A stretch of DNA of 64,000 nucleotides from Dysgonamonadaceae bacterium. GTDB taxonomy: Bacteria; Bacteroidota; Bacteroidia; Bacteroidales; Azobacteroidaceae. Within the stretch, counting starts at the first letter, position 1. Each line of letters opens with the position of its first letter. The notes under the pieces are model-generated. The model was not told where the DNA came from, did not search any database, and saw only the letters and a program-made list of their open reading frames with translations. The translations under genes and the position numbers were made by a program. The DNA is taken from NCBI GenBank assembly GCA_031253625.1, contig JAIRVZ010000111.1, forward strand, positions 1 to 64,000. The letters run 5' to 3'. Of this stretch, positions 7,222-16,620 are shown piece by piece.

Positions 7222-9543
7222 TTAGTCCATAAACCGAGGATTAAAAATTACATATCCTATATTCAAACCAAAATTCCAATTATTCCTTGGAAAGCTATAA
7301 TAATTTCCGAAGACACTTACAGATAAAAATGGAAATTGAATTACCAATGAAGTTTCTCCCATATAAGTAATATTTGAAAACAAATTGCCATAATACGCTT
7401 GGGCATTAGCACCTTGTTTTATTGGTCTAACCGGCGCAAACACATTAAAATCACCGCGTAAATGAATCATTTGATTCACTTTGTAAATAGGCGTAATGCC
7501 TGTCGCAACATATTGATTAGCCCTGAAACCTTCATTAAAAACCAATTTGCTATGCGGTGTGGGAGTAAAAGCCGGAGCCTGCATAACACTTGTAGTATAA
7601 TTACTTTGTAAGTTTTTACTTGATATAACTGTTTCCAACAGATACCCGTAATTTAGTTTATTATTTATTATATGATAGTTATTTATGCGTCCGAATATTT
7701 GTAACCACGATTGATTTTCGGTTATGTTATCTTTAATCGGACTATAGAATTTACTACCCGGTCTATATGATTCTTTTCCTGCAACAAATTGAGTTAGCAT
7801 ATTGTAATTCTTACCGGTTATAGGGTATTGTTTAGCATCAAATGTGTTTTTTTCGATAGAAACACCTAATGAAAACAAATCATAAGCACTTGTATCAAAA
7901 TTAGTATTTGGGAGGTTCGTTTTGTTTTGATAATATTTATCTTCTAAATAACCATATCCTATTTTGATTTCACTTTTACCTTCATTCCCAAAAGGAAAAC
8001 CTACACTCAATTTCGTATATCCTTCACTCTGTTGCATGAAAGTAAGCAAGTCATCATCTATAAATAATTTTTCACTTTCGTAATATCTACGATAACTAAA
8101 TGCGTTCATAAACTTGAAGTAAATCGGAAATTTATATGGAGGTTCGACTCTTCCTTGTAATAAATAACCGTTAAATGCGTTTCCAACCTGTAAATCCAAA
8201 TTAAGATTTATAGAATATTCGGTTAAAAACTTATATCCTAATCCTAAATAAAACTGATTGGCATTCATCGAAGATATGTTTCCACCAAAAGCCACCGTTA
8301 TTTCATCATCTATTTTAACATTTAACAGCAAGTCGAAGTAACCTGTTTCTTGATTATACCGAGCATGAGGAATAATTTCTTTTATTTTAATATCAGCCAA
8401 AAGCTTGAAATACGCCTTTCTGAAATCTTCCATAGTAAAAGTATCAAGTTCGTTGTTCTTTAGCTGACTTTCAATATAATCTCTTTGGTCTCGCGTTGCT
8501 CCGGTAATGATAACTTTTTGAAACAGAAGTGCCGGTTTACGATTACGAAAATCTGCTCTTTTTTGGGCTATTTCTTCCGGTGAAACGGTTCTTTCAACTC
8601 GCAATCTGATTGAATCGACCATTTCCAACCCTCGCTTATAACCAATCTCAAAAAGTTCCGGAGCCCTATCAAAATCCAACAAGCCAATTTCATCTAAGTC
8701 GAAACGAAAGAAAATACCTTTCTCCGGATTTAACGAATAGTCTGTTCTTTGTCCAATTATCATACTTTCAAGCTGTCCATACAGACTTCGATCCATTTTT
8801 TGTGCTTTTTTGGAAGTTCCTGCAACCGCACTACCAATAATAAAATCCGGCCTAAACGCATTCACCATAGGCCTGATAGGAAAATTATCATACAATCCTC
8901 CATCATACAATGGCACATCATCTTGAACAATCGGCTTGAACACAAAGGGAAATGTCATAGATGCTCTTACTGCATCGCCCAAATCTCCCGATCGAAAAAT
9001 TATTGGCCTTTTGTTATAAACATCAGACGCTATGCAAAGAAATGGAACCATTAAATTATTAAAATCTCCATCTGAAACCGCATTTGCCTGAGCAAATAAT
9101 CCCATAAATGCCTGATTCATTTGTATCGGATTAATCAGATTAGTAGGAAGAATAGAACCCAAAACATCGGTCGAATCTCTCAACGGAATAGGAACCGTAA
9201 ATTTAACAAATTCAGGAGTTTCATTTGGTTTTCTGAAGTAATAAAAATAGTTATCTTCTACTTTCCCGGTTTGCCAATAATGAAAATCTTTCGACATGAA
9301 AAGGTCAAGCATTTCCCTGGGAGAATATCCCATGGCATACATAGCACCTACGATAGACCCGATTGATGTTCCACTGATATAATCAATTGGTATGTTATTT
9401 TCTTCGAGGGCTTCGATTAAACCGATATGAGCCATACCTTTAGCGCCTCCTCCACTCAACACTAAACCTACTCTTTGTCCGAATACCATACTGTTTCCGG
9501 ACAAACACAAAACTAAAAAAAATAAAACTATTCGTCTGAACAT
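7222..9543 (-). CDS. Patatin-like phospholipase fused to an outer-membrane beta-barrel
   Basis: A 773-residue exported protein. Residues 1-22 are a signal peptide. The patatin domain follows: oxyanion loop SGGGAKGMAHIG near 31-42, nucleophile elbow GTSIGS near 58-63, and catalytic Asp in DGGLYDNFP near 217. A POTRA-like segment (about 330-420) and a BamA/TamA-type barrel (about 430-773) complete it. The architecture matches PlpD-like type Vd secreted lipases, and homologues are common in Bacteroidota. Both catalytic residues are present, so lipid hydrolysis is likely; the substrate is unknown. It diverges from the his operon. Confidence 0.9.
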   Translation of the reverse strand: MFRRIVLFFLVLCLSGNSMVFGQRVGLVLSGGGAKGMAHIGLIEALEENNIPIDYISGTSIGSIVGAMYAMGYSPREMLDLFMSKDFHYWQTGKVEDNYFYYFRKPNETPEFVKFTVPIPLRDSTDVLGSILPTNLINPIQMNQAFMGLFAQANAVSDGDFNNLMVPFLCIASDVYNKRPIIFRSGDLGDAVRASMTFPFVFKPIVQDDVPLYDGGLYDNFPIRPMVNAFRPDFIIGSAVAGTSKKAQKMDRSLYGQLESMIIGQRTDYSLNPEKGIFFRFDLDEIGLLDFDRAPELFEIGYKRGLEMVDSIRLRVERTVSPEEIAQKRADFRNRKPALLFQKVIITGATRDQRDYIESQLKNNELDTFTMEDFRKAYFKLLADIKIKEIIPHARYNQETGYFDLLLNVKIDDEITVAFGGNISSMNANQFYLGLGYKFLTEYSINLNLDLQVGNAFNGYLLQGRVEPPYKFPIYFKFMNAFSYRRYYESEKLFIDDDLLTFMQQSEGYTKLSVGFPFGNEGKSEIKIGYGYLEDKYYQNKTNLPNTNFDTSAYDLFSLGVSIEKNTFDAKQYPITGKNYNMLTQFVAGKESYRPGSKFYSPIKDNITENQSWLQIFGRINNYHIINNKLNYGYLLETVISSKNLQSNYTTSVMQAPAFTPTPHSKLVFNEGFRANQYVATGITPIYKVNQMIHLRGDFNVFAPVRPIKQGANAQAYYGNLFSNITYMGETSLVIQFPFLSVSVFGNYYSFPRNNWNFGLNIGYVIFNPRFMD

Positions 9544-9591: not shown

Positions 9592-9652
9592 GGTTTAAAC
9601 TTTTTTCCTTGCACATAAATACAGAAAATTTTTTATTTATTTATTTTTTAAT

Positions 9653-9660
9653 TACCTTTG
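9653..9660 (+). promoter_or_regulatory. -7 promoter element TACCTTTG of the his operon
   Basis: An exact TAnnTTTG match lies 19 bases before the leader-peptide ATG, so the predicted transcript would start near 9667 with a very short untranslated lead. The -33 region is A/T-rich without a clear TTG. Confidence 0.65.
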
Positions 9661-9679
9661 CAGAGAAAATAAAAACATC

Positions 9680-9721
9680 ATGAATCGTTACACTCATATC
9701 CATCATCATTACAACGGGTAA
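9680..9721 (+). CDS. hisL: His operon leader peptide MNRYTHIHHHYNG
   Basis: A 13-codon open frame (ATG at 9680, TAA at 9719-9721) encodes MNRYTHIHHHYNG, with four CAT histidine codons, three of them consecutive. It lies between a -7 element and a terminator hairpin, directly upstream of hisG. This is the arrangement of a ribosome-mediated attenuator: ribosomes stalling on His codons when charged tRNA-His is scarce should favour antitermination. Analogous hisL peptides are known in enterobacteria. The frame is seen directly; translation and regulation are inferred. Confidence 0.85.
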   Translation: MNRYTHIHHHYNG

Positions 9722-9790
9722 TCTCGGTGGGTTTTTGTGTGTATTAAAAAAATATAAGGCTTACCGGACAGGTGAGCCTTCTTTGTTGGT
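9708..9790 (+). promoter_or_regulatory. Histidine attenuator with terminator stem
   Basis: The terminator stem is AAGGCTTACC (9756-9765) with GGTGAGCCTT (9771-9780), a 5-base loop and a T-rich tail CTTTGTTGGT. A competing hairpin, ATTAC-AACGG-GTAAT (9708-9722), spans the leader stop codon. The CGGGTAA bases at the leader end can also pair with TTACCGG (9761-9767) at 6 of 7 positions, a plausible antiterminator that a ribosome at the stop codon would block. Folding energies were not computed. Confidence 0.75.
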
Positions 9791-9812
9791 GTAATCTTAA
9801 TTTATTGAATAT

Positions 9813-10664
9813 ATGCTTAGAATTGCTGTACAAGCCAAAGGTCGATTGTTTGAAGAAACAATGGAATTATTAAACGAAACCGGTATTAAATTGGTTTTAG
9901 GTAAAAGAAGTTTATTGGTTCCTGCTAAAACATTTCCTGTAGAATTACTTTTCTTACGGGATGACGATATTCCTCAATCGGTAGCATCAGGCGTTGCTGA
10001 TGTTGGAATTGTCGGAGAAAACGAATTTGTGGAAAAAAAGGAAAATGCACAAATCATTAAACGCCTTGGTTTCAGTAAATGTCGTTTATCTTTAGCCATT
10101 CCTAAAGATGAAGAATACAGTAATTTGAGTTGGTTTTCCGGTAAAAAAATAGCTACCTCCTACCCCGAAATCCTCTCTGATTTTTTTAAGAAAAATGCAA
10201 TTAAAGCCGGAATACACGTCATTTCCGGTTCGGTTGAAATTGCTCCCGGAATTGGTTTGGCAGATGCCATTTTCGACATTGTAAGTTCGGGTAGCACACT
10301 GGTTAGCAACCGATTAAAAGAAGTTGAGGTTGTAATGGATTCCGAAGCTTTATTGATTGGCAACAATAAGCTAAGCAATGAAAAACAGGAAATCCTTAAC
10401 GAGTTGATTTTCAGAATAGATGCCGTACAAACAGCTGAGAATAAAAAATATATCTTATTGAACGCTCCTAACGACAAATTAGACGAAATTTTCGCTGTTT
10501 TGCCAGGAATGAAGAGTCCTACGGTACTTCCGTTGGCTCAAGAAGGTTGGAGTTCTATTCATTCGGTCATCGACGAAAAACGTTTTTGGGAGATTATCGG
10601 GAAATTAAAAGCCTTGGGAGCCGAAGGCATTTTGGTTATTCCGATAGAGAAAATGATATTGTAA
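9813..10664 (+). CDS. hisG: ATP phosphoribosyltransferase, long form
   Basis: Catalyses the first step of histidine synthesis, joining ATP and PRPP. The 283-residue length and the C-terminal segment from about 205 (KYILLNAPNDKLDEIFAVLPGMKSPTV) identify the long HisG with its ACT-like regulatory domain, which binds histidine for feedback inhibition. The PRPP site region contains DAIFDIVSSGSTLVSNRL near 150-167. The start follows MLRIAVQAKGRL, typical of this family. It is the first structural gene after the attenuator and is followed 30 bases later by the boundary of the inserted cassettes. Confidence 0.97.
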   Translation: MLRIAVQAKGRLFEETMELLNETGIKLVLGKRSLLVPAKTFPVELLFLRDDDIPQSVASGVADVGIVGENEFVEKKENAQIIKRLGFSKCRLSLAIPKDEEYSNLSWFSGKKIATSYPEILSDFFKKNAIKAGIHVISGSVEIAPGIGLADAIFDIVSSGSTLVSNRLKEVEVVMDSEALLIGNNKLSNEKQEILNELIFRIDAVQTAENKKYILLNAPNDKLDEIFAVLPGMKSPTVLPLAQEGWSSIHSVIDEKRFWEIIGKLKALGAEGILVIPIEKMIL

Positions 10665-10766: not shown

Positions 10767-11474
10767 ATGGAAAAAATTAGAAATGGAATAGCAATTTCCT
10801 TTACTGCAATGTTACCTATATTGTCAGTGCCTTTTTATAGTTATTTGACTTCAAAGGATATACCACAATTTCTTGCGTTATTCTTATTGATGTTGATTTC
10901 TATCTTAATTGCTTGTTTTAGTTATTTTTTTCTGCCAAACCTGCTTAATCGCTTTTACTTTATCAGACGTTTATTTTACCCACTTGCAAGATATGAAGGT
11001 CAATGGATTAATATCATAGATATAGATAATCAAGTAGATGACCGTGTTTGTGGTTTCAGTAACTTTAAATACGACAAGTTTGAGAATACTTATTTATATT
11101 CAGGTGAAAATTTTAATAGTAAAGGAGTGTTATTAACTTCATTTGTTATTAACGATATTCAGTATTCAAAAGAGATTAATGGTTTCAGATTTTTTGGCAT
11201 TGTCAAAAAAAATGATGATACTTCGTTTTATTGCTACGGAGAAATTGCATTCACAGAAACAGGAGACAAAAAAATAAATTCTGCTCATGGCTTTTTTATT
11301 AACAATAGTAAAATAATTGTACGTGCGAAATTTATTGTTGATAGAATAGAGGATAGTGATATTTCGCATTTTTTAGGAGAGAATAATAATTTAAAGCGTA
11401 GCAATCAACGTGCAATTTTTGCCGCAAAATATTACCAAAAATACAAAGAATCTATAAATTTACAAGAAGTATGA
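10767..11474 (+). CDS. Two-TM, beta-rich hypothetical protein (Cap15-like architecture)
   Basis: A 235-residue protein encoded by cassette 1. Two hydrophobic helices lie near residues 8-27 (ISFTAMLPILSVPFYSYLT) and 33-56 (FLALFLLMLISILIACFSYFF). A cytosolic domain of alternating strands follows from about 72 (ARYEGQWINIIDID) to 195. A two-TM plus beta-barrel plan is that of the SMODS-associated 2TM-beta (Cap15) effectors of CBASS defence, which bind cyclic oligonucleotides. No CD-NTase gene is nearby, and I cannot confirm homology from sequence reading alone. It is otherwise a hypothetical membrane protein, A/T-rich in contrast to the flanking recombination site. Confidence 0.7.
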   Translation: MEKIRNGIAISFTAMLPILSVPFYSYLTSKDIPQFLALFLLMLISILIACFSYFFLPNLLNRFYFIRRLFYPLARYEGQWINIIDIDNQVDDRVCGFSNFKYDKFENTYLYSGENFNSKGVLLTSFVINDIQYSKEINGFRFFGIVKKNDDTSFYCYGEIAFTETGDKKINSAHGFFINNSKIIVRAKFIVDRIEDSDISHFLGENNNLKRSNQRAIFAAKYYQKYKESINLQEV

Positions 11475-11532
11475 ATATTGGAAAAACAATTAGAGTTAAC
11501 AGATTATTGTATAAAGAAATAGAATGCACTGC

Positions 11533-11660
11533 CTCTAACGAGTGGTTTCACGCAAGCGGGGGTGTATGCCCGCAGACAGTTTTGTGGGAATTTGGAAGTG
11601 TATCGCCCGCCCGAACCTTTGTGAGCCCCCCGCCTGCGTGAAGCCGCCACTACGTTATGT
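11533..11660 (+). repeat. attC-like recombination site 1
   Basis: R'' CTCTAAC (11533-11539) and R' GTTATGT (11654-11660) bound a 128-bp imperfect palindrome. Arms TAACGAGTGG-TTTCACGCAAG and (complement of the right side) TAACGTAGTGGCGGCTTCAC pair, with an extra T and an extra CGG on one side only, like the extrahelical bases that orient attC sites. The length lies within the known attC range (roughly 57-141 bp). It is strikingly GC-rich against its surroundings. Confidence 0.75.
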
Positions 11661-11759
11661 GCAAGCGGCGGACAGCGTGCGGACAATGAAAAGCGAGTTT
11701 GAACGTTAAACAAAATATAAACCTTCCGACAGGACATAAAAAAGAAAAAACATAAACTA

Positions 11760-12347
11760 ATGAGTAAAAAAGAAAAAATGGACAATCATAATAATTCACA
11801 GAATACAAATATGATTTGTCCTGCGGAAGCAGCAGGAATGCTTGACAATTCGTTCCGAAAACTAATACACAATCCTCAAAAAATACTGAAACCGTATATT
11901 AAAGCAGGAATGACAGTTTTAGATGTAGGCTGTGGACCCGGATTTTTTTCGATTGAAATTGCAAAAATGCTTAACGGTTCAGGAAAGGTTATTGCCACTG
12001 ACATACAAGAAAAAATGCTTGACAAAGTCAGAAAAAAGATTAAAAGTACAAATTTGGAACAAACCGTTGAATTGCATAAAAGCGATTTAGAAAATATAGG
12101 CGTTGCTGAAAAAGTAGATTTTGTATTAGTATTTTGGATGCTTCACGAGGTAAGAAATCAAGAGAGATTTTTAGAAGAATTGATTTCAATACTGAAACCT
12201 AATGGTTTGATTTTTATAATTGAGCCGAAATTTCACGTAACAAAGACAGAGTTCAGAAAAATAGTTGATAAGATAAAAGCAAGCGGACTTACAATAGTTG
12301 AAAATCCAAAAGTATTTATTAGTCGGACAATTGTATTGAGTAAATAA
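11760..12347 (+). CDS. Class I SAM-dependent methyltransferase (cassette gene)
   Basis: A 195-residue protein encoded by cassette 2. Motif I, VLDVGCGPGFFSIEIA, lies near residues 52-67, the acidic end of strand 2 is VIATDIQEKML near 75-85, motif post-II is LHKSDLENIG, and VFWMLHEV near 122-129 followed by LKPNGLIFIIEP near 145-156 completes the Rossmann methyltransferase fold. It resembles small-molecule methyltransferases of the UbiE/ArsM-like group, but the substrate is unknown. ATG at 11760 or 11778 may be used. Its stop is 17 bases before the second attC-like site. Confidence 0.88.
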   Translation: MSKKEKMDNHNNSQNTNMICPAEAAGMLDNSFRKLIHNPQKILKPYIKAGMTVLDVGCGPGFFSIEIAKMLNGSGKVIATDIQEKMLDKVRKKIKSTNLEQTVELHKSDLENIGVAEKVDFVLVFWMLHEVRNQERFLEELISILKPNGLIFIIEPKFHVTKTEFRKIVDKIKASGLTIVENPKVFISRTIVLSK

Positions 12348-12492: not shown

Positions 12493-13767
12493 ATGCAAAT
12501 AGTAAAATATCCTCAAAAAAGCGATTGGGCACAAATCCTAACTCGCCCAACATTCGACAATTCGGCTTTATTCGAAATCGTCAAAGATGTTTTGGACGAT
12601 GTTCGTATACGCTGCGATGAAGCAGTAAAAGAATACGGATTAAAATTCGACAAAGTAGAATTATCAGATTTACAAGTATCTGAAAATGAAATTATCGAGG
12701 CTGAAAAGTTGATTTCCGACGAACTGAAATCAGCTATTCTATTGGCAAAAGGTAATATCGAAAAATTCCATGCCGCACAACGACATGATTTGCCAAAAAT
12801 CGAAACAATGCCGGGCGTAACCTGTTGGCAAAAAGCAGTCGCGATAGAAAAAGTAGGATTGTATATTCCGGGAGGAACTGCTCCCCTATTTTCTACGGTA
12901 TTGATGTTGGCCATTCCTGCACAAATTGCCGGTTGCAAAGAAATTATGCTTTGTTCGCCTCCCAACCGTGATGGGAAAATACATCCTGCAGTGTTGTATG
13001 CTGCTAAAGTTTCGGGTGTTACAAAAATATATAAAATCGGTGGTATTCAAGCGATTGGCGCCATGTCTTACGGTACGGAAAGCGTTCCGAAAGTATATAA
13101 AATATTTGGTCCAGGCAATCAATATGTTACCGCAGCCAAACAGCTGGTTTCGTTGAGCGATGTAGCCATTGATATGCCTGCCGGTCCTTCGGAAGTGGAA
13201 GTATTGGCTGACGAAACAGCAAATCCTGTTTTCGTTGCTGCCGATTTGCTTTCTCAAGCAGAGCACGGCATCGACAGTCAGGCAATTTTAATCACAACAA
13301 GCGAATCATTGGCCAACGAAGTTGTAGAGCAGGTTGCTATTCAAGTAGAACAATTGCCGCGCGCTGATATAGCAAAGAAAGCATTGGAACATAGCAAGAT
13401 AATTATTGTAAAAGAAATGAACGAGGCCATTGCCGTTACCAACGAATACGCGCCCGAACATTTGATTATTTCAACCCAAAATTATCGTGAAATTGCCGAA
13501 AAAATCATCAATGCAGGCTCAATTTTCCTTGGAAATTACACTCCCGAAAGCGCAGGAGATTACGCCTCAGGAACCAATCATACATTGCCCACAAACAGTT
13601 ATGCTAAAGCATATAGCGGTGTTAATTTGGATAGTTTTATAAAAAAAATCACTTTCCAAGAAATAACGAAAGAAGGTTTGCAAAATATTGGCGATGCTAT
13701 TGAGATTATGGCAGAAAATGAATTGCTTACAGCACACAAGAATGCAGTGCAGTTAAGGAGGAAATAA
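12493..13767 (+). CDS. hisD: Histidinol dehydrogenase
   Basis: Catalyses the last two NAD-dependent oxidations, histidinol to histidine. The 424-residue length is normal. Recognisable segments are VGLYIPGGTAPLFSTVLML near residues 118-136, GPGNQYVTAAKQLV near 205-218, the zinc/catalytic region SQAEHGIDSQA near 253-263, EYAPEHL near 315-321 and GDYASGTNHTLPT near 353-365. The start MQIVKYPQKSDW is natural for Bacteroidota HisD. It lies 46 bases downstream of the cassette boundary and is therefore separated from hisG by 1.8 kb of foreign-looking DNA. Confidence 0.97.
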   Translation: MQIVKYPQKSDWAQILTRPTFDNSALFEIVKDVLDDVRIRCDEAVKEYGLKFDKVELSDLQVSENEIIEAEKLISDELKSAILLAKGNIEKFHAAQRHDLPKIETMPGVTCWQKAVAIEKVGLYIPGGTAPLFSTVLMLAIPAQIAGCKEIMLCSPPNRDGKIHPAVLYAAKVSGVTKIYKIGGIQAIGAMSYGTESVPKVYKIFGPGNQYVTAAKQLVSLSDVAIDMPAGPSEVEVLADETANPVFVAADLLSQAEHGIDSQAILITTSESLANEVVEQVAIQVEQLPRADIAKKALEHSKIIIVKEMNEAIAVTNEYAPEHLIISTQNYREIAEKIINAGSIFLGNYTPESAGDYASGTNHTLPTNSYAKAYSGVNLDSFIKKITFQEITKEGLQNIGDAIEIMAENELLTAHKNAVQLRRK

Positions 13768-13808
13768 GTCTATTAAAATATTTTCAAACTAAATAAAATC
13801 AAAACAAA

Positions 13809-14438
13809 ATGGAAAATCAAAACAGCATTAAATTATTTGAGAACAAGCAAGTTCGCTCGGTATGGGATAGCGAACAGGAAAAATGGTACATCTCTGTAGT
13901 AGATGTTATCGAAGTATTAACAGGAAGCGACCGACCGCGAAAATATTGGGACGACCTAAAACGTAAGTTACGAGCAGAAGGGAGTGAACTGTCCGAAAAA
14001 ATCGGACAGTTGAAATTACTGGCTCCTGACGGCAAAATGCGTCTTACCGATGTGGCTGATGTAGAGCAACTCTTTCGTCTCATACAATCCATTCCTTCAC
14101 CCAAAGCAGAGCCATTCAAGCAGTGGCTGGCACAACTTGCTCGCGAACGTTTGGAAGAAATTGACAATCCCGAACAAGGCATTAACCGTGTACTGGAATA
14201 CTATCATCGCAAAGGCTATTCCGATAAATGGATTAATCAACGCCTGAAGTCAATCGAAGTTCGCAAAGAGTTGACCGATGAATGGGAACGAAGAGGTGTA
14301 AAACAGGGACAGGAGTTTTCCACGCTAACCGACATTAGTAGTAAAATTGTTGGTAATACTCGGCAAGAAATAGAAGAAAATATCGGGAAAAGCATTGTTT
14401 CACCGGTTAATGCGAAAGAAATAAAAAGATTGAAATAA
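13809..14438 (+). CDS. BRO-family (Bro-N) protein, internally shortened
   Basis: A 209-residue protein with an N-terminal BRO domain (about residues 8-105: VRSVWDSEQEKWYISVVDVIEVLTGS, KYWDDLKRKL, LFRLIQSIPSPKAEPFKQWL), like DinD-type and phage antirepressor-like proteins that may bind DNA. Family members I recall are about 270-290 residues and continue after the EW..RG..QGQE..LT segment with a region of about 60-75 residues containing GLKRENLRDHM and ELIFTMLGE. Here that part is absent and the reading frame joins directly to the C-terminal AGNARQ.LE...GK.VVS-like end, suggesting an in-frame deletion. It interrupts the operon between hisD and hisC. Confidence 0.85.
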   Translation: MENQNSIKLFENKQVRSVWDSEQEKWYISVVDVIEVLTGSDRPRKYWDDLKRKLRAEGSELSEKIGQLKLLAPDGKMRLTDVADVEQLFRLIQSIPSPKAEPFKQWLAQLARERLEEIDNPEQGINRVLEYYHRKGYSDKWINQRLKSIEVRKELTDEWERRGVKQGQEFSTLTDISSKIVGNTRQEIEENIGKSIVSPVNAKEIKRLK

Positions 14439-14472
14439 TATGCCTAAATTTGTGGCTTAAAAACATTAATTA

Positions 14473-15501
14473 ATGGACTTACAAAAACTTGTTCGACAAA
14501 ATATTTGGAATCTGAAGCCCTATTCTTCAGCCCGCGACGAATTTAAAGGAGAGGCATCTGTTTATTTAGATGCCAACGAAAATCCTTATAATAATGATGT
14601 TAATCGTTATCCTGATCCTTTGCAATGGGAAGTCAAAGAGAAAATTTCGCAAATCAAAGGAGTTGCCATAAAAAAAATCATGCTCGGAAACGGTAGCGAT
14701 GAACCCATTGATTTGGTTTTCCGTGTGTTCTGCGAACCCGGAATCGATAATGTTGTTGCAATAGACCCGACTTACGGAATGTATCAGGTGTCGGCAGACA
14801 TTAATAATGTGGAGTATCGTAAAGTGCTACTAAATAGTGATTTTGATTTTAATTCCGATAATTTACTTCAAAAAACGGATAAAAATACCAAAGCTATTTT
14901 CCTTTGCTCTCCCAACAATCCGACAGGGAATTCGCTAAACAGAAATGAAATAGTTAAGACTATTGAAAATTTCGCAGGAATTGTTGTTGTTGATGAGGCA
15001 TATATCGATTTTTCATCTCAGAAGTCTTTTTTGAATGAGTTAGATAAATATCCCAATTTGATAGTTTTACAAACATTTTCTAAAGCTTGGGCGGGCGCGG
15101 GCATCCGTTTGGGAATGGCTTTTGCATCTGAGGAAATTATTCGTTTGTTCAATAAAGTGAAATATCCTTATAACGTCAATAAATTAACTCAAAATTATGC
15201 ATTAAATTTGTTGAACAATTATCAGGAAGTCAGAGATAAAGTTGCAACCATATTAGAAGAACGAGCCAAATTACAACAGGAGTTATCAAATCTTTCTTGT
15301 GTAGAAAAGGCATATCCGACTGATTCTAACTTCCTGTTAATTAAAGTAGGTGATGCAGATAATATGTATCAACAACTTGTGAATAAAGGAATTATTGTTC
15401 GAAATAGGAATAAAATTTCTCTATGTATGAACTGCTTACGAATTACAGTCGGAACTCCTGAAGAAAATAAAGAATTAATAACAGAATTAGCTAATTTATA
15501 A
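14473..15501 (+). CDS. hisC: Histidinol-phosphate aminotransferase
   Basis: A 342-residue fold-type I PLP enzyme converting imidazole acetol-phosphate to histidinol-phosphate with glutamate. Visible features are YLDANENPY near 32-40, [10 protein letters not shown] near 74-83, the CSPNNPTGN segment near 143-151, DEAYIDF near 177-183, and the PLP lysine in [14 protein letters not shown] near 204-217. It ends directly at the hisB start, with no intergenic bases. A -7-like TAAATTTG sits at 14445-14452 upstream, which could give hisC-hisB their own promoter downstream of the BRO gene. Confidence 0.97.
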
Positions 15502-16620
15502 ATGAAAACAGCTTTATTCATAGACCGTGACGGAACATTGGTCGTTGAGCCTCCTGTTGATTACCAATTGGATAGCTTGGAGAAATTAGAATTTTATCCT
15601 AAAGCATTCAATAATCTCCACTTTATCAGGAAGAATTTGGATTTTGAGTTTGTTATGGTAACCAACCAAGACGGATTGGGAACCGATTCTTTTCCGGAAG
15701 AAACGTTTTGGCCTGCTCACAATAAAATCTTGAAAGCATTTGAAAACGAAGGAGTTACTTTTGACGATATTTTAATCGACCGCTCTTTCCCCGAAAACAA
15801 CGCTCCTACTCGTAAGCCTCGCACGGGAATGTTGGGAAAATATCTTTCCGGAGAATATGATTTGACCAATTCTTTTGTCATCGGAGACCGTCTGACGGAT
15901 ATAGAATTGGCCAAAAACTTAGGATGTAAAGGCATTTTGCTAAACGATGAAAGTTTACTTTCCGAAAGAACAGACTTGCAAGATGTTTGCATTTTAGCCA
16001 CTGCCGATTGGGATAAAATCACGGAAATCCTTTTTGCAAAAGAACGTCGTGCTGTTGTGCAACGTACAACAAAGGAAACAGATATCTATGTTGAAATCAA
16101 CGTCGACGGCAGCGGAAAAACCGACATTTCAACAGGATTACACTTTTTCGACCACATGCTGGAACAAATCGGCAAACATTCCGGAATGGATTTGAAAATC
16201 CATGTAAAAGGAGATTTGAATGTAGATGAACATCACACAATTGAAGATACGGGAATCGCTTTGGGAGAAACGTTGTATAAAGCATTAGGAAATAAAAGAG
16301 GCATCGAACGCTACGGTTTTTGTCTTCCGATGGATGATTGTCTGTGCACGGTTGCTCTCGATTTCGGAGGTCGCCCGTGGTTAGTTTGGGATGCCGAGTT
16401 TCACAGAGAAAAAATAGGCGATATGCCCACGGAAATGTTTATGCACTTTTTCAAATCATTGAGCGATTCTGCCCGAATGAATTTGAACATCAAAGCAGAA
16501 GGAAATAATGAACATCATAAGATTGAAGGGGTATTCAAATCATTGGCAAAAGCAATAAAAATGGCCATAAAAAGAGATATTTTTCATTACGAACTGCCAT
16601 CTACAAAGGGAATTTTGTAA
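15502..16620 (+). CDS. hisB: Bifunctional histidinol-phosphatase / imidazoleglycerol-phosphate dehydratase
   Basis: A 372-residue fusion. Residues 1-165 are a HAD phosphatase ([11 protein letters not shown] near 8-18; TNQDG near 54; KPRTGML near 107; IGDRLTD near 129) that dephosphorylates histidinol-phosphate. Residues 180-372 are the IGPD dehydratase with the metal-binding HFFDHML near 215, [10 protein letters not shown] near 243 and NEHHKIEG near 336. The HAD part lacks the cysteine zinc site (C.H....C.C) of E. coli HisB; the equivalent stretch reads [15 protein letters not shown] recall the same in Bacteroides, so it is probably a lineage trait. Confidence 0.97.

What the first reader, a model, noticed from the sequence alone, without database searches (positions are those of the whole stretch)
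9653..9790. Histidine attenuator with unannotated 13-residue leader peptide
Seen: TACCTTTG promoter element, short open frame MNRYTHIHHHYNG with four His codons, a hairpin over the stop codon, and a terminator stem before hisG. Leader-peptide attenuation of his operons is established in Proteobacteria; here the same logic appears in a Bacteroidota genome with a shorter peptide. The GGGTAA bases at the leader stop can pair with the terminator's left arm, giving a simple antiterminator.
Basis: partly seen in the sequence, partly recalled or inferred. Interest (0 to 1): 0.65.

Follow-up and report, generated by a model that had tools for sequence, protein, structure and literature searches.

The report
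Histidine attenuator upstream of hisG
Just before the histidine-synthesis genes, this Bacteroidales bacterium encodes a 13-residue, histidine-rich leader peptide followed by an RNA switch that most likely stops transcription when histidine is plentiful; relatives show that this control is standard across the class, though few papers mention it.

Summary
In detail: a TACCTTTG promoter element, leader ORF MNRYTHIHHHYNG (9680-9721), a hairpin spanning its stop codon, and a 10-bp terminator hairpin (9756-9780), 32 nt before hisG. It is not chance. In close relatives, 36 of 81 hisG loci carry a His-run leader (1.15 expected). In a class-wide sample not chosen for leaders, 86 of 100 do (3.3 expected), and no other residue is enriched. 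The conserved antiterminator is GGTGGGT at 9726-9732, just after the stop codon, not GGGTAA. It starts 14-21 nt after the last His codon in all 34 aligned leaders, while the stop codon's place varies by 25 nt. That is the geometry expected of a ribosome stalled at His codons. The terminator helix covaries. The antiterminator pairing is kept in 97% of cells but does not covary beyond shuffles. It is a new member of a known kind. The Rfam His_leader, Bacteroid-trp and T-box models do not match it. Earlier work reported leader-peptide clues and a hisG 5' element in Flavobacteriaceae. Added here: the Bacteroidales family, its near-universality in the class, the geometry, and a terminator-less variant. 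No RNA data were available.

The parts
9653..9660 (+). Bacteroidota-type -7 promoter element TACCTTTG; the -33 element is weak here
   Evidence: Sequence; a TAnnTTTG box lies within 60 nt upstream of the leader ATG in 34 of 34 leaders, 2.3 expected
9680..9721 (+). leader peptide ORF MNRYTHIHHHYNG, His codons at 9695-9697 and 9701-9709, stop TAA 9719-9721
   Evidence: His-run leaders at the same place in relatives
9698..9732 (+). protector (1:2) hairpin: ATCCATC 9698-9704, in the His-codon stretch, pairs with GGTGGGT 9726-9732; inner stem ATTAC 9708-9712 with GTAAT 9718-9722 over the stop codon
   Evidence: minimum-energy fold of the leader without a ribosome
9726..9732 (+). antiterminator strand GGTGGGT; pairs with GCTTACC 9759-9765
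   Evidence: duplex energy better than 98% of shuffles in the window; pairing kept in 97.4% of cells over 33 sequences against 32-48% when slid
9756..9780 (+). intrinsic terminator hairpin AAGGCTTACC-GGACA-GGTGAGCCTT
   Evidence: helix covaries, 5 of 10 pairs changed on both sides, 98.5% of cells paired
9781..9789 (+). weak U-rich terminator tail CTTTGTTGG
   Evidence: sequence; relatives mostly have T6-T8
9813..10664 (+). hisG, ATP phosphoribosyltransferase, first gene of the his cluster
   Evidence: Pfam HisG 9.5e-51 and HisG_C 1e-29
12493..16620 (+). hisD (12493-13767), hisC (14473-15501) and hisB (15502-16620), likely regulated downstream genes
   Evidence: Pfam Histidinol_dh, Aminotran_1_2, IGPD; co-transcription is inferred

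Best explanation
The region is a ribosome-mediated transcription attenuator of the his operon. RNA polymerase starts about 5-10 nt after TACCTTTG and a ribosome begins MNRYTHIHHHYNG. If charged tRNA-His is scarce, the ribosome stalls at the His codons (9701-9709), breaks the protector hairpin and leaves GGTGGGT (9726-9732) free. That strand captures the left arm of the terminator (GCTTACC, 9759-9765) as it emerges, so transcription runs on into hisG. If His is plentiful, the ribosome reaches the stop codon and covers the stretch through about 9731, so the terminator 9756-9780 forms and transcription ends near 9785-9790. Without translation, the His-codon stretch and GGTGGGT pair with each other (protector), which again leaves the terminator free. 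Shown: the parts, their conservation, the terminator covariation, the spacing and the alternative folds. Inferred: stalling, termination efficiency, the transcription start, and that the downstream his genes are co-transcribed.
For: His-run leader before 36 of 81 close hisG loci against 1.15 expected, and before 86 of 100 in a class-wide hisG sample against 3.3 expected. Specific to His: 72 of 100 regions have an ORF with at least 4 His in 6 residues, next best residue Ser with 4. Terminator in 28 of 36 and 70 of 86; helix covaries with 37 doubly changed cells against 13 shuffled, 0 of 500 shuffles reaching it. Antiterminator complementarity: 27 of 34 at p<=0.05, combined p about 3e-24, though the sequences are related. 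It starts 14-21 nt (mode 18) after the last His codon in 34 of 34, while its position relative to the stop runs from -19 to +6; in the class-wide set the spread is 3 nt about the His cluster against 6 nt about the stop. Three-state folding: stalled at the last His codon, all 7 antiterminator pairs form in 31 of 34; ribosome at stop, none in 30 of 34. Promoter box in 34 of 34. A covariance model finds it upstream of hisG in other orders and classes of the phylum.
Against: No transcript, termination or starvation data. The antiterminator pairs vary mostly by G-U wobble and do not covary above shuffles. The window's U tail is weak and its -33 element poor. Many termite-gut relatives and Prevotellaceae-type MAGs lack the leader. 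The 'stop' state of the folding test is set by a masking distance that I chose (12 nt from the first base of the A-site codon).
Confidence: 0.9

Rival explanations
1. The leader controls translation or Rho-dependent termination rather than intrinsic termination: the peptide is sensed, but the hairpin at 9756-9780 mainly shapes access to hisG or to Rho.
For: The U tail is weak in the window. Leaders of one family (f114) and a group ending in HHSS have His leaders with no T-tailed hairpin at all, so a non-terminator output exists in the class.
Against: In relatives the same hairpin is followed by T6-T8 and its stem covaries; the hairpin ends 32 nt before the hisG start and does not cover it.
Confidence: 0.07
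2. A T-box or other metabolite-binding riboswitch rather than a leader peptide senses His.
For: T-boxes control his genes in Firmicutes (PMC9413887).
Against: No T-box or riboswitch match at Rfam gathering cut-offs in the window, nor at E<=10 in 9600-9830; the conserved feature is a coding run of His codons with drifting flanks.
Confidence: 0.01
3. Chance short ORF next to an unrelated terminator of the upstream transcript.
For: Short ORFs are common; the upstream gene (7222-9543) is on the other strand.
Against: 36 against 1.15 and 86 against 3.3 expected leaders; fixed spacing to the antiterminator; the terminator lies downstream of a conserved promoter box.
Confidence: 0.01

Closest known systems
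his operon leader of E. coli and Salmonella (hisL; Rfam RF00514 His_leader)
   Same: His-rich leader peptide before hisG, protector, antiterminator and terminator folds; hisG first in the operon.
   Different: No sequence or covariance-model match; a single short antiterminator strand next to the stop codon; Bacteroidota promoter.
Bacteroid-trp leader (Rfam RF01692; Weinberg 2010, PMC2864571)
   Same: Cis-regulatory peptide-leader RNA of the same phylum; one copy in this same genome, 62.7 bits, over the cut-off.
   Different: Trp rather than His; the his leader scores 21.2 bits against a cut-off of 49.
Structured 5' regions with leader-peptide clues in Flavobacterium psychrophilum, including one upstream of hisG (PMC9723704)
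   Same: Same phylum, same gene, no Rfam match, transcribed 5' region seen by RNA sequencing; leader-peptide attenuation proposed for amino-acid operons.
   Different: Family Flavobacteriaceae; in the class-wide sample leaders of that style (HHHHFH..SQAK, antiterminator CTCAGGCG) have a different RNA sequence from the window's. The paper's text does not say that the hisG element is one of the leader-peptide cases, and its supplements could not be read.
His attenuators predicted in Bacillus cereus group, Peptostreptococcaceae and Erysipelotrichales (PMC9413887)
   Same: Leader peptides with three to five His codons in a row, then terminator and antiterminator hairpins.
   Different: Firmicutes; no sequence relation tested.

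Membership tests
ribosome-mediated transcription attenuator of a his operon (class of mechanism) | short translated leader with a run of His codons upstream of a his gene | tested here: met
   ORF 9680-9721, conserved in relatives, His only; translation itself not shown
ribosome-mediated transcription attenuator of a his operon (class of mechanism) | intrinsic terminator between leader and first gene | tested here: met
   9756-9780, covarying helix, T-rich tail in relatives, weak tail in the window
ribosome-mediated transcription attenuator of a his operon (class of mechanism) | mutually exclusive antiterminator that a ribosome stalled at the sensed codons leaves free | tested here: met
   pairing conserved, spacing fixed to the His codons, folds switch with ribosome position; covariation of this helix not above shuffles
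ribosome-mediated transcription attenuator of a his operon (class of mechanism) | response of read-through to His supply | not testable with these tools
   needs RNA or reporter data
Rfam RF00514 His_leader (proteobacterial sequence family) | match to the covariance model | tested here: not met
   no match at gathering cut-off or at E<=10
Rfam RF01692 Bacteroid-trp | match to the covariance model at its gathering score | tested here: not met
   21.2 bits against 49
T-box riboswitch | match to a T-box covariance model | tested here: not met
   no match in the window or the region

The most novel reading that the evidence does not exclude
His leader peptides before hisG are the default control of histidine synthesis in the class Bacteroidia. 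The sensor (a His run) is kept while the RNA output drifts between lineages: GGTRAGY or CGGTGGG with GCTTACC in Bacteroidales and others, CTCAGGCG with CGTCTGAG in a second large group, and in family f114 a terminator-less form with a covarying-looking hairpin over the last His codons, which would need another output such as translation or Rho.
Probability: 0.6. Interest if true: 0.55.

Novelty: new member of a known kind. Interest (0 to 1): 0.42.

Why it matters
Leader-peptide attenuation is usually taught from Proteobacteria, and the literature held here describes it for Actinobacteria and some Firmicutes, with only brief mentions for Bacteroidota. A leader before most hisG genes of the class gives gut and environmental Bacteroidota a simple, testable readout of histidine limitation, yields an unannotated RNA family with no Rfam model, and supplies a natural series in which the spacing between sensed codon and antiterminator is measured directly. 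The terminator-less variant would be a useful contrast if it works.

Tried and rejected
Rfam scan for a known leader, T-box or riboswitch: none. Covariation as proof of the antiterminator: not above shuffles. Second and third covariance-model hits in the own genome (G000:C16, C40; E 0.03 and 0.58): hairpins behind other genes without a His leader, taken as chance. Vitreschak et al. 2004 (FEMS Microbiol Lett 234:357), which from memory mentions some Bacteroidetes/Chlorobi attenuators, is not held and was not checked.

Full report
What is there. The window holds, in order, TACCTTTG (9653-9660), a 13-codon ORF MNRYTHIHHHYNG (9680-9721) with four His codons, a hairpin across the stop codon, a 10-bp stem with a 5-nt loop (9756-9780), and hisG (9813-10664). 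The terminator hairpin is more stable than shuffles (z -3.45) and is the only terminator-like site in 400 bases, against 0.1 expected. Its U tail is weak. No Rfam family matches at the gathering cut-off. At a lax threshold the best scores are amino-acid leaders of other kinds, far under their cut-offs, and RF00514 and T-box do not appear.

Is it more than chance. I fetched 80 close hisG relatives from genome contigs and looked for short ORFs with at least 3 His in 6 residues in the 300 bases upstream. 36 of 81 loci, the window included, have one, against 1.15 expected in dinucleotide shuffles; 28 also have a terminator, against 0 expected. Two of the 36 (L065, L078) look accidental and were dropped, leaving 34. 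Leaders occur in Dysgonomonas, Bacteroides and several Bacteroidales MAGs. They are missing in many termite-gut Dysgonamonadaceae/Symbiothrix MAGs and in nearly all rumen Prevotellaceae/Bacteroidaceae MAGs of the set. Every one of the 34 has a TAnnTTTG promoter box within 60 nt upstream of the leader ATG, against 2.3 expected.

A sample not chosen for leaders. I took hisG genes from 256 genomes of the class, fetched the upstream 331 bases of 100 of them (11 genomes already known to carry the element by covariance model, the window, and one genome with only hisG fragments were left out), and repeated the test. 86 have a His-run leader against 3.3 expected, and 70 of these have a T-tailed hairpin downstream. 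A few of the 86, such as L237 and L246, may be accidental. The enrichment is for His alone: 72 of 100 regions have an ATG ORF with at least 4 His in 6 residues; the next residue is Ser with 4.

The switch. In 34 leaders I searched the stretch between the His codons and the terminator for the best partner of the terminator's left arm. The partner beats 95% of shuffles in 27 of 34. It is a single element, GGTRAGY or CGGTGGG, and it starts 14-21 nt after the last His codon in all 34, mode 18, whereas its place relative to the stop codon runs from 19 nt before to 6 nt after. In the class-wide set the median absolute deviation is 3 nt about the end of the His cluster and 6 nt about the stop. So the His codons, not the stop codon, appear to fix where the element sits, as expected if it must lie just beyond a ribosome stalled there. 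In the window the element is GGTGGGT at 9726-9732, partner GCTTACC at 9759-9765, 16 nt after the last His codon.

Three states. Folding each leader with the ribosome-covered part removed gives, with a ribosome at the last His codon, all seven antiterminator pairs in 31 of 34. With a ribosome at the stop codon, none form in 30 of 34. With no ribosome, part of the His-codon stretch is held in a hairpin, which in the window is ATCCATC (9698-9704) with GGTGGGT itself, and in Dysgonomonas mostly CATCAT with a downstream GATGTGATG. The stop-codon state follows from the masking length chosen (12 nt from the A-site codon), so it shows that the geometry is right, not that termination occurs.

Covariation. 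The terminator helix is paired in 98.5% of cells, with 5 of 10 pairs changed on both sides and 37 doubly changed cells against 13 in shuffles, none of 500 reaching it. The antiterminator helix is paired in 97.4% of cells against 32-48% when slid, but varies almost only by G-U exchange, with one doubly changed cell in the alignment (L051, GGCGAGT with GCTTGCC), so covariation does not exceed shuffles. One further relative outside the alignment, L083, shows the same exchange (GGCGAGC with GCTTGCC).

Distribution. A covariance model built from 33 leaders finds matches in 98 of 295 genomes of the order and 48 of 393 of the phylum at E<=0.01. Of the 58 loci inspected, including two weak second hits in the own genome, 51 have hisG in the locus, nearly all with a His leader. 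Two of the rest lie upstream of ilvD or ilvE with Ile/Val-rich short ORFs. The same genome also carries a Bacteroid-trp leader over its Rfam cut-off, so ribosome-sensed attenuation is not confined to his here.

Prior knowledge. His attenuators are established in enterobacteria and predicted in several Firmicutes lineages (PMC9413887; earlier Bacillus leaders in PMC2965389). For Bacteroidota, the Bacteroid-trp leader was found computationally (PMC2864571), and a transcriptome study of Flavobacterium psychrophilum reported leader-peptide clues before amino-acid operons and a structured, Rfam-less 5' element upstream of hisG conserved in Flavobacteriaceae (PMC9723704). I recall that Vitreschak et al. 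2004 listed a few Bacteroidetes/Chlorobi cases, but the paper is not held. I found no paper in the library that describes the Bacteroidales family. The finding is therefore a new member of a known kind.

What remains open. No RNA data were available, so termination, stalling and the transcription start are inferred. The window's hisG is followed by two genes not detected in 59 related loci (10767-11474, and a methyltransferase 11760-12347) before hisD, and by a Bro-N gene (13809-14438) between hisD and hisC. Whether one transcript still covers all his genes here is unknown. In family f114 the leaders lack a T-tailed hairpin and instead show hairpins over the last His codons. That variant deserves its own study.

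Noticed in passing
L255, L257-L261, L263, L266, L267 (upstream of hisG, family f114): His leaders with no convincing T-tailed terminator but a hairpin over the last His codons with differing stem sequences (ATCGCC/GGCGAT, ATCACCAC/GTGGTGAT, ATCACC/GGTGAT); six of the nine (L258-L260, L263, L266, L267) also keep a TTTCTACGYGRARY-like block. Suggests a different output, perhaps translation or Rho.
   Followed up: partly
L178, L182, L183, L207, L212, L243: His leaders ending in ..HHSS*, most with a hairpin ATTCCTC/GAGGAAT whose loop holds the stop codon; no classical terminator found.
   Followed up: partly
L159 and L168, model hit at 1501-1608 and 1501-1603: Upstream of ilvD and ilvE, Ile/Val-rich short ORFs (L168: MNTRILNIISIIVVVIIISQG) followed by T-tailed hairpins: candidate branched-chain attenuators of the same design.
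   Followed up: partly
L128 (G325:C1:3443577-3443976): Two complete His leader-terminator units in tandem before one hisG (MKILNHHNGHHHILSFWVG and MKNFIHHFGHHHFLPKG), both with GGTAGGC and GCTTACC.
   Followed up: partly
window 10767-12347 and 13809-14438: The his cluster is interrupted: a 235-aa ORF without Pfam match and a methyltransferase between hisG and hisD, and a Bro-N domain protein between hisD and hisC; none of the three detected in 59 related loci.
   Followed up: partly
L269 (G000:C78:56167-56301): The same genome carries a Bacteroid-trp leader (RF01692), 62.7 bits, over its cut-off.
   Followed up: no
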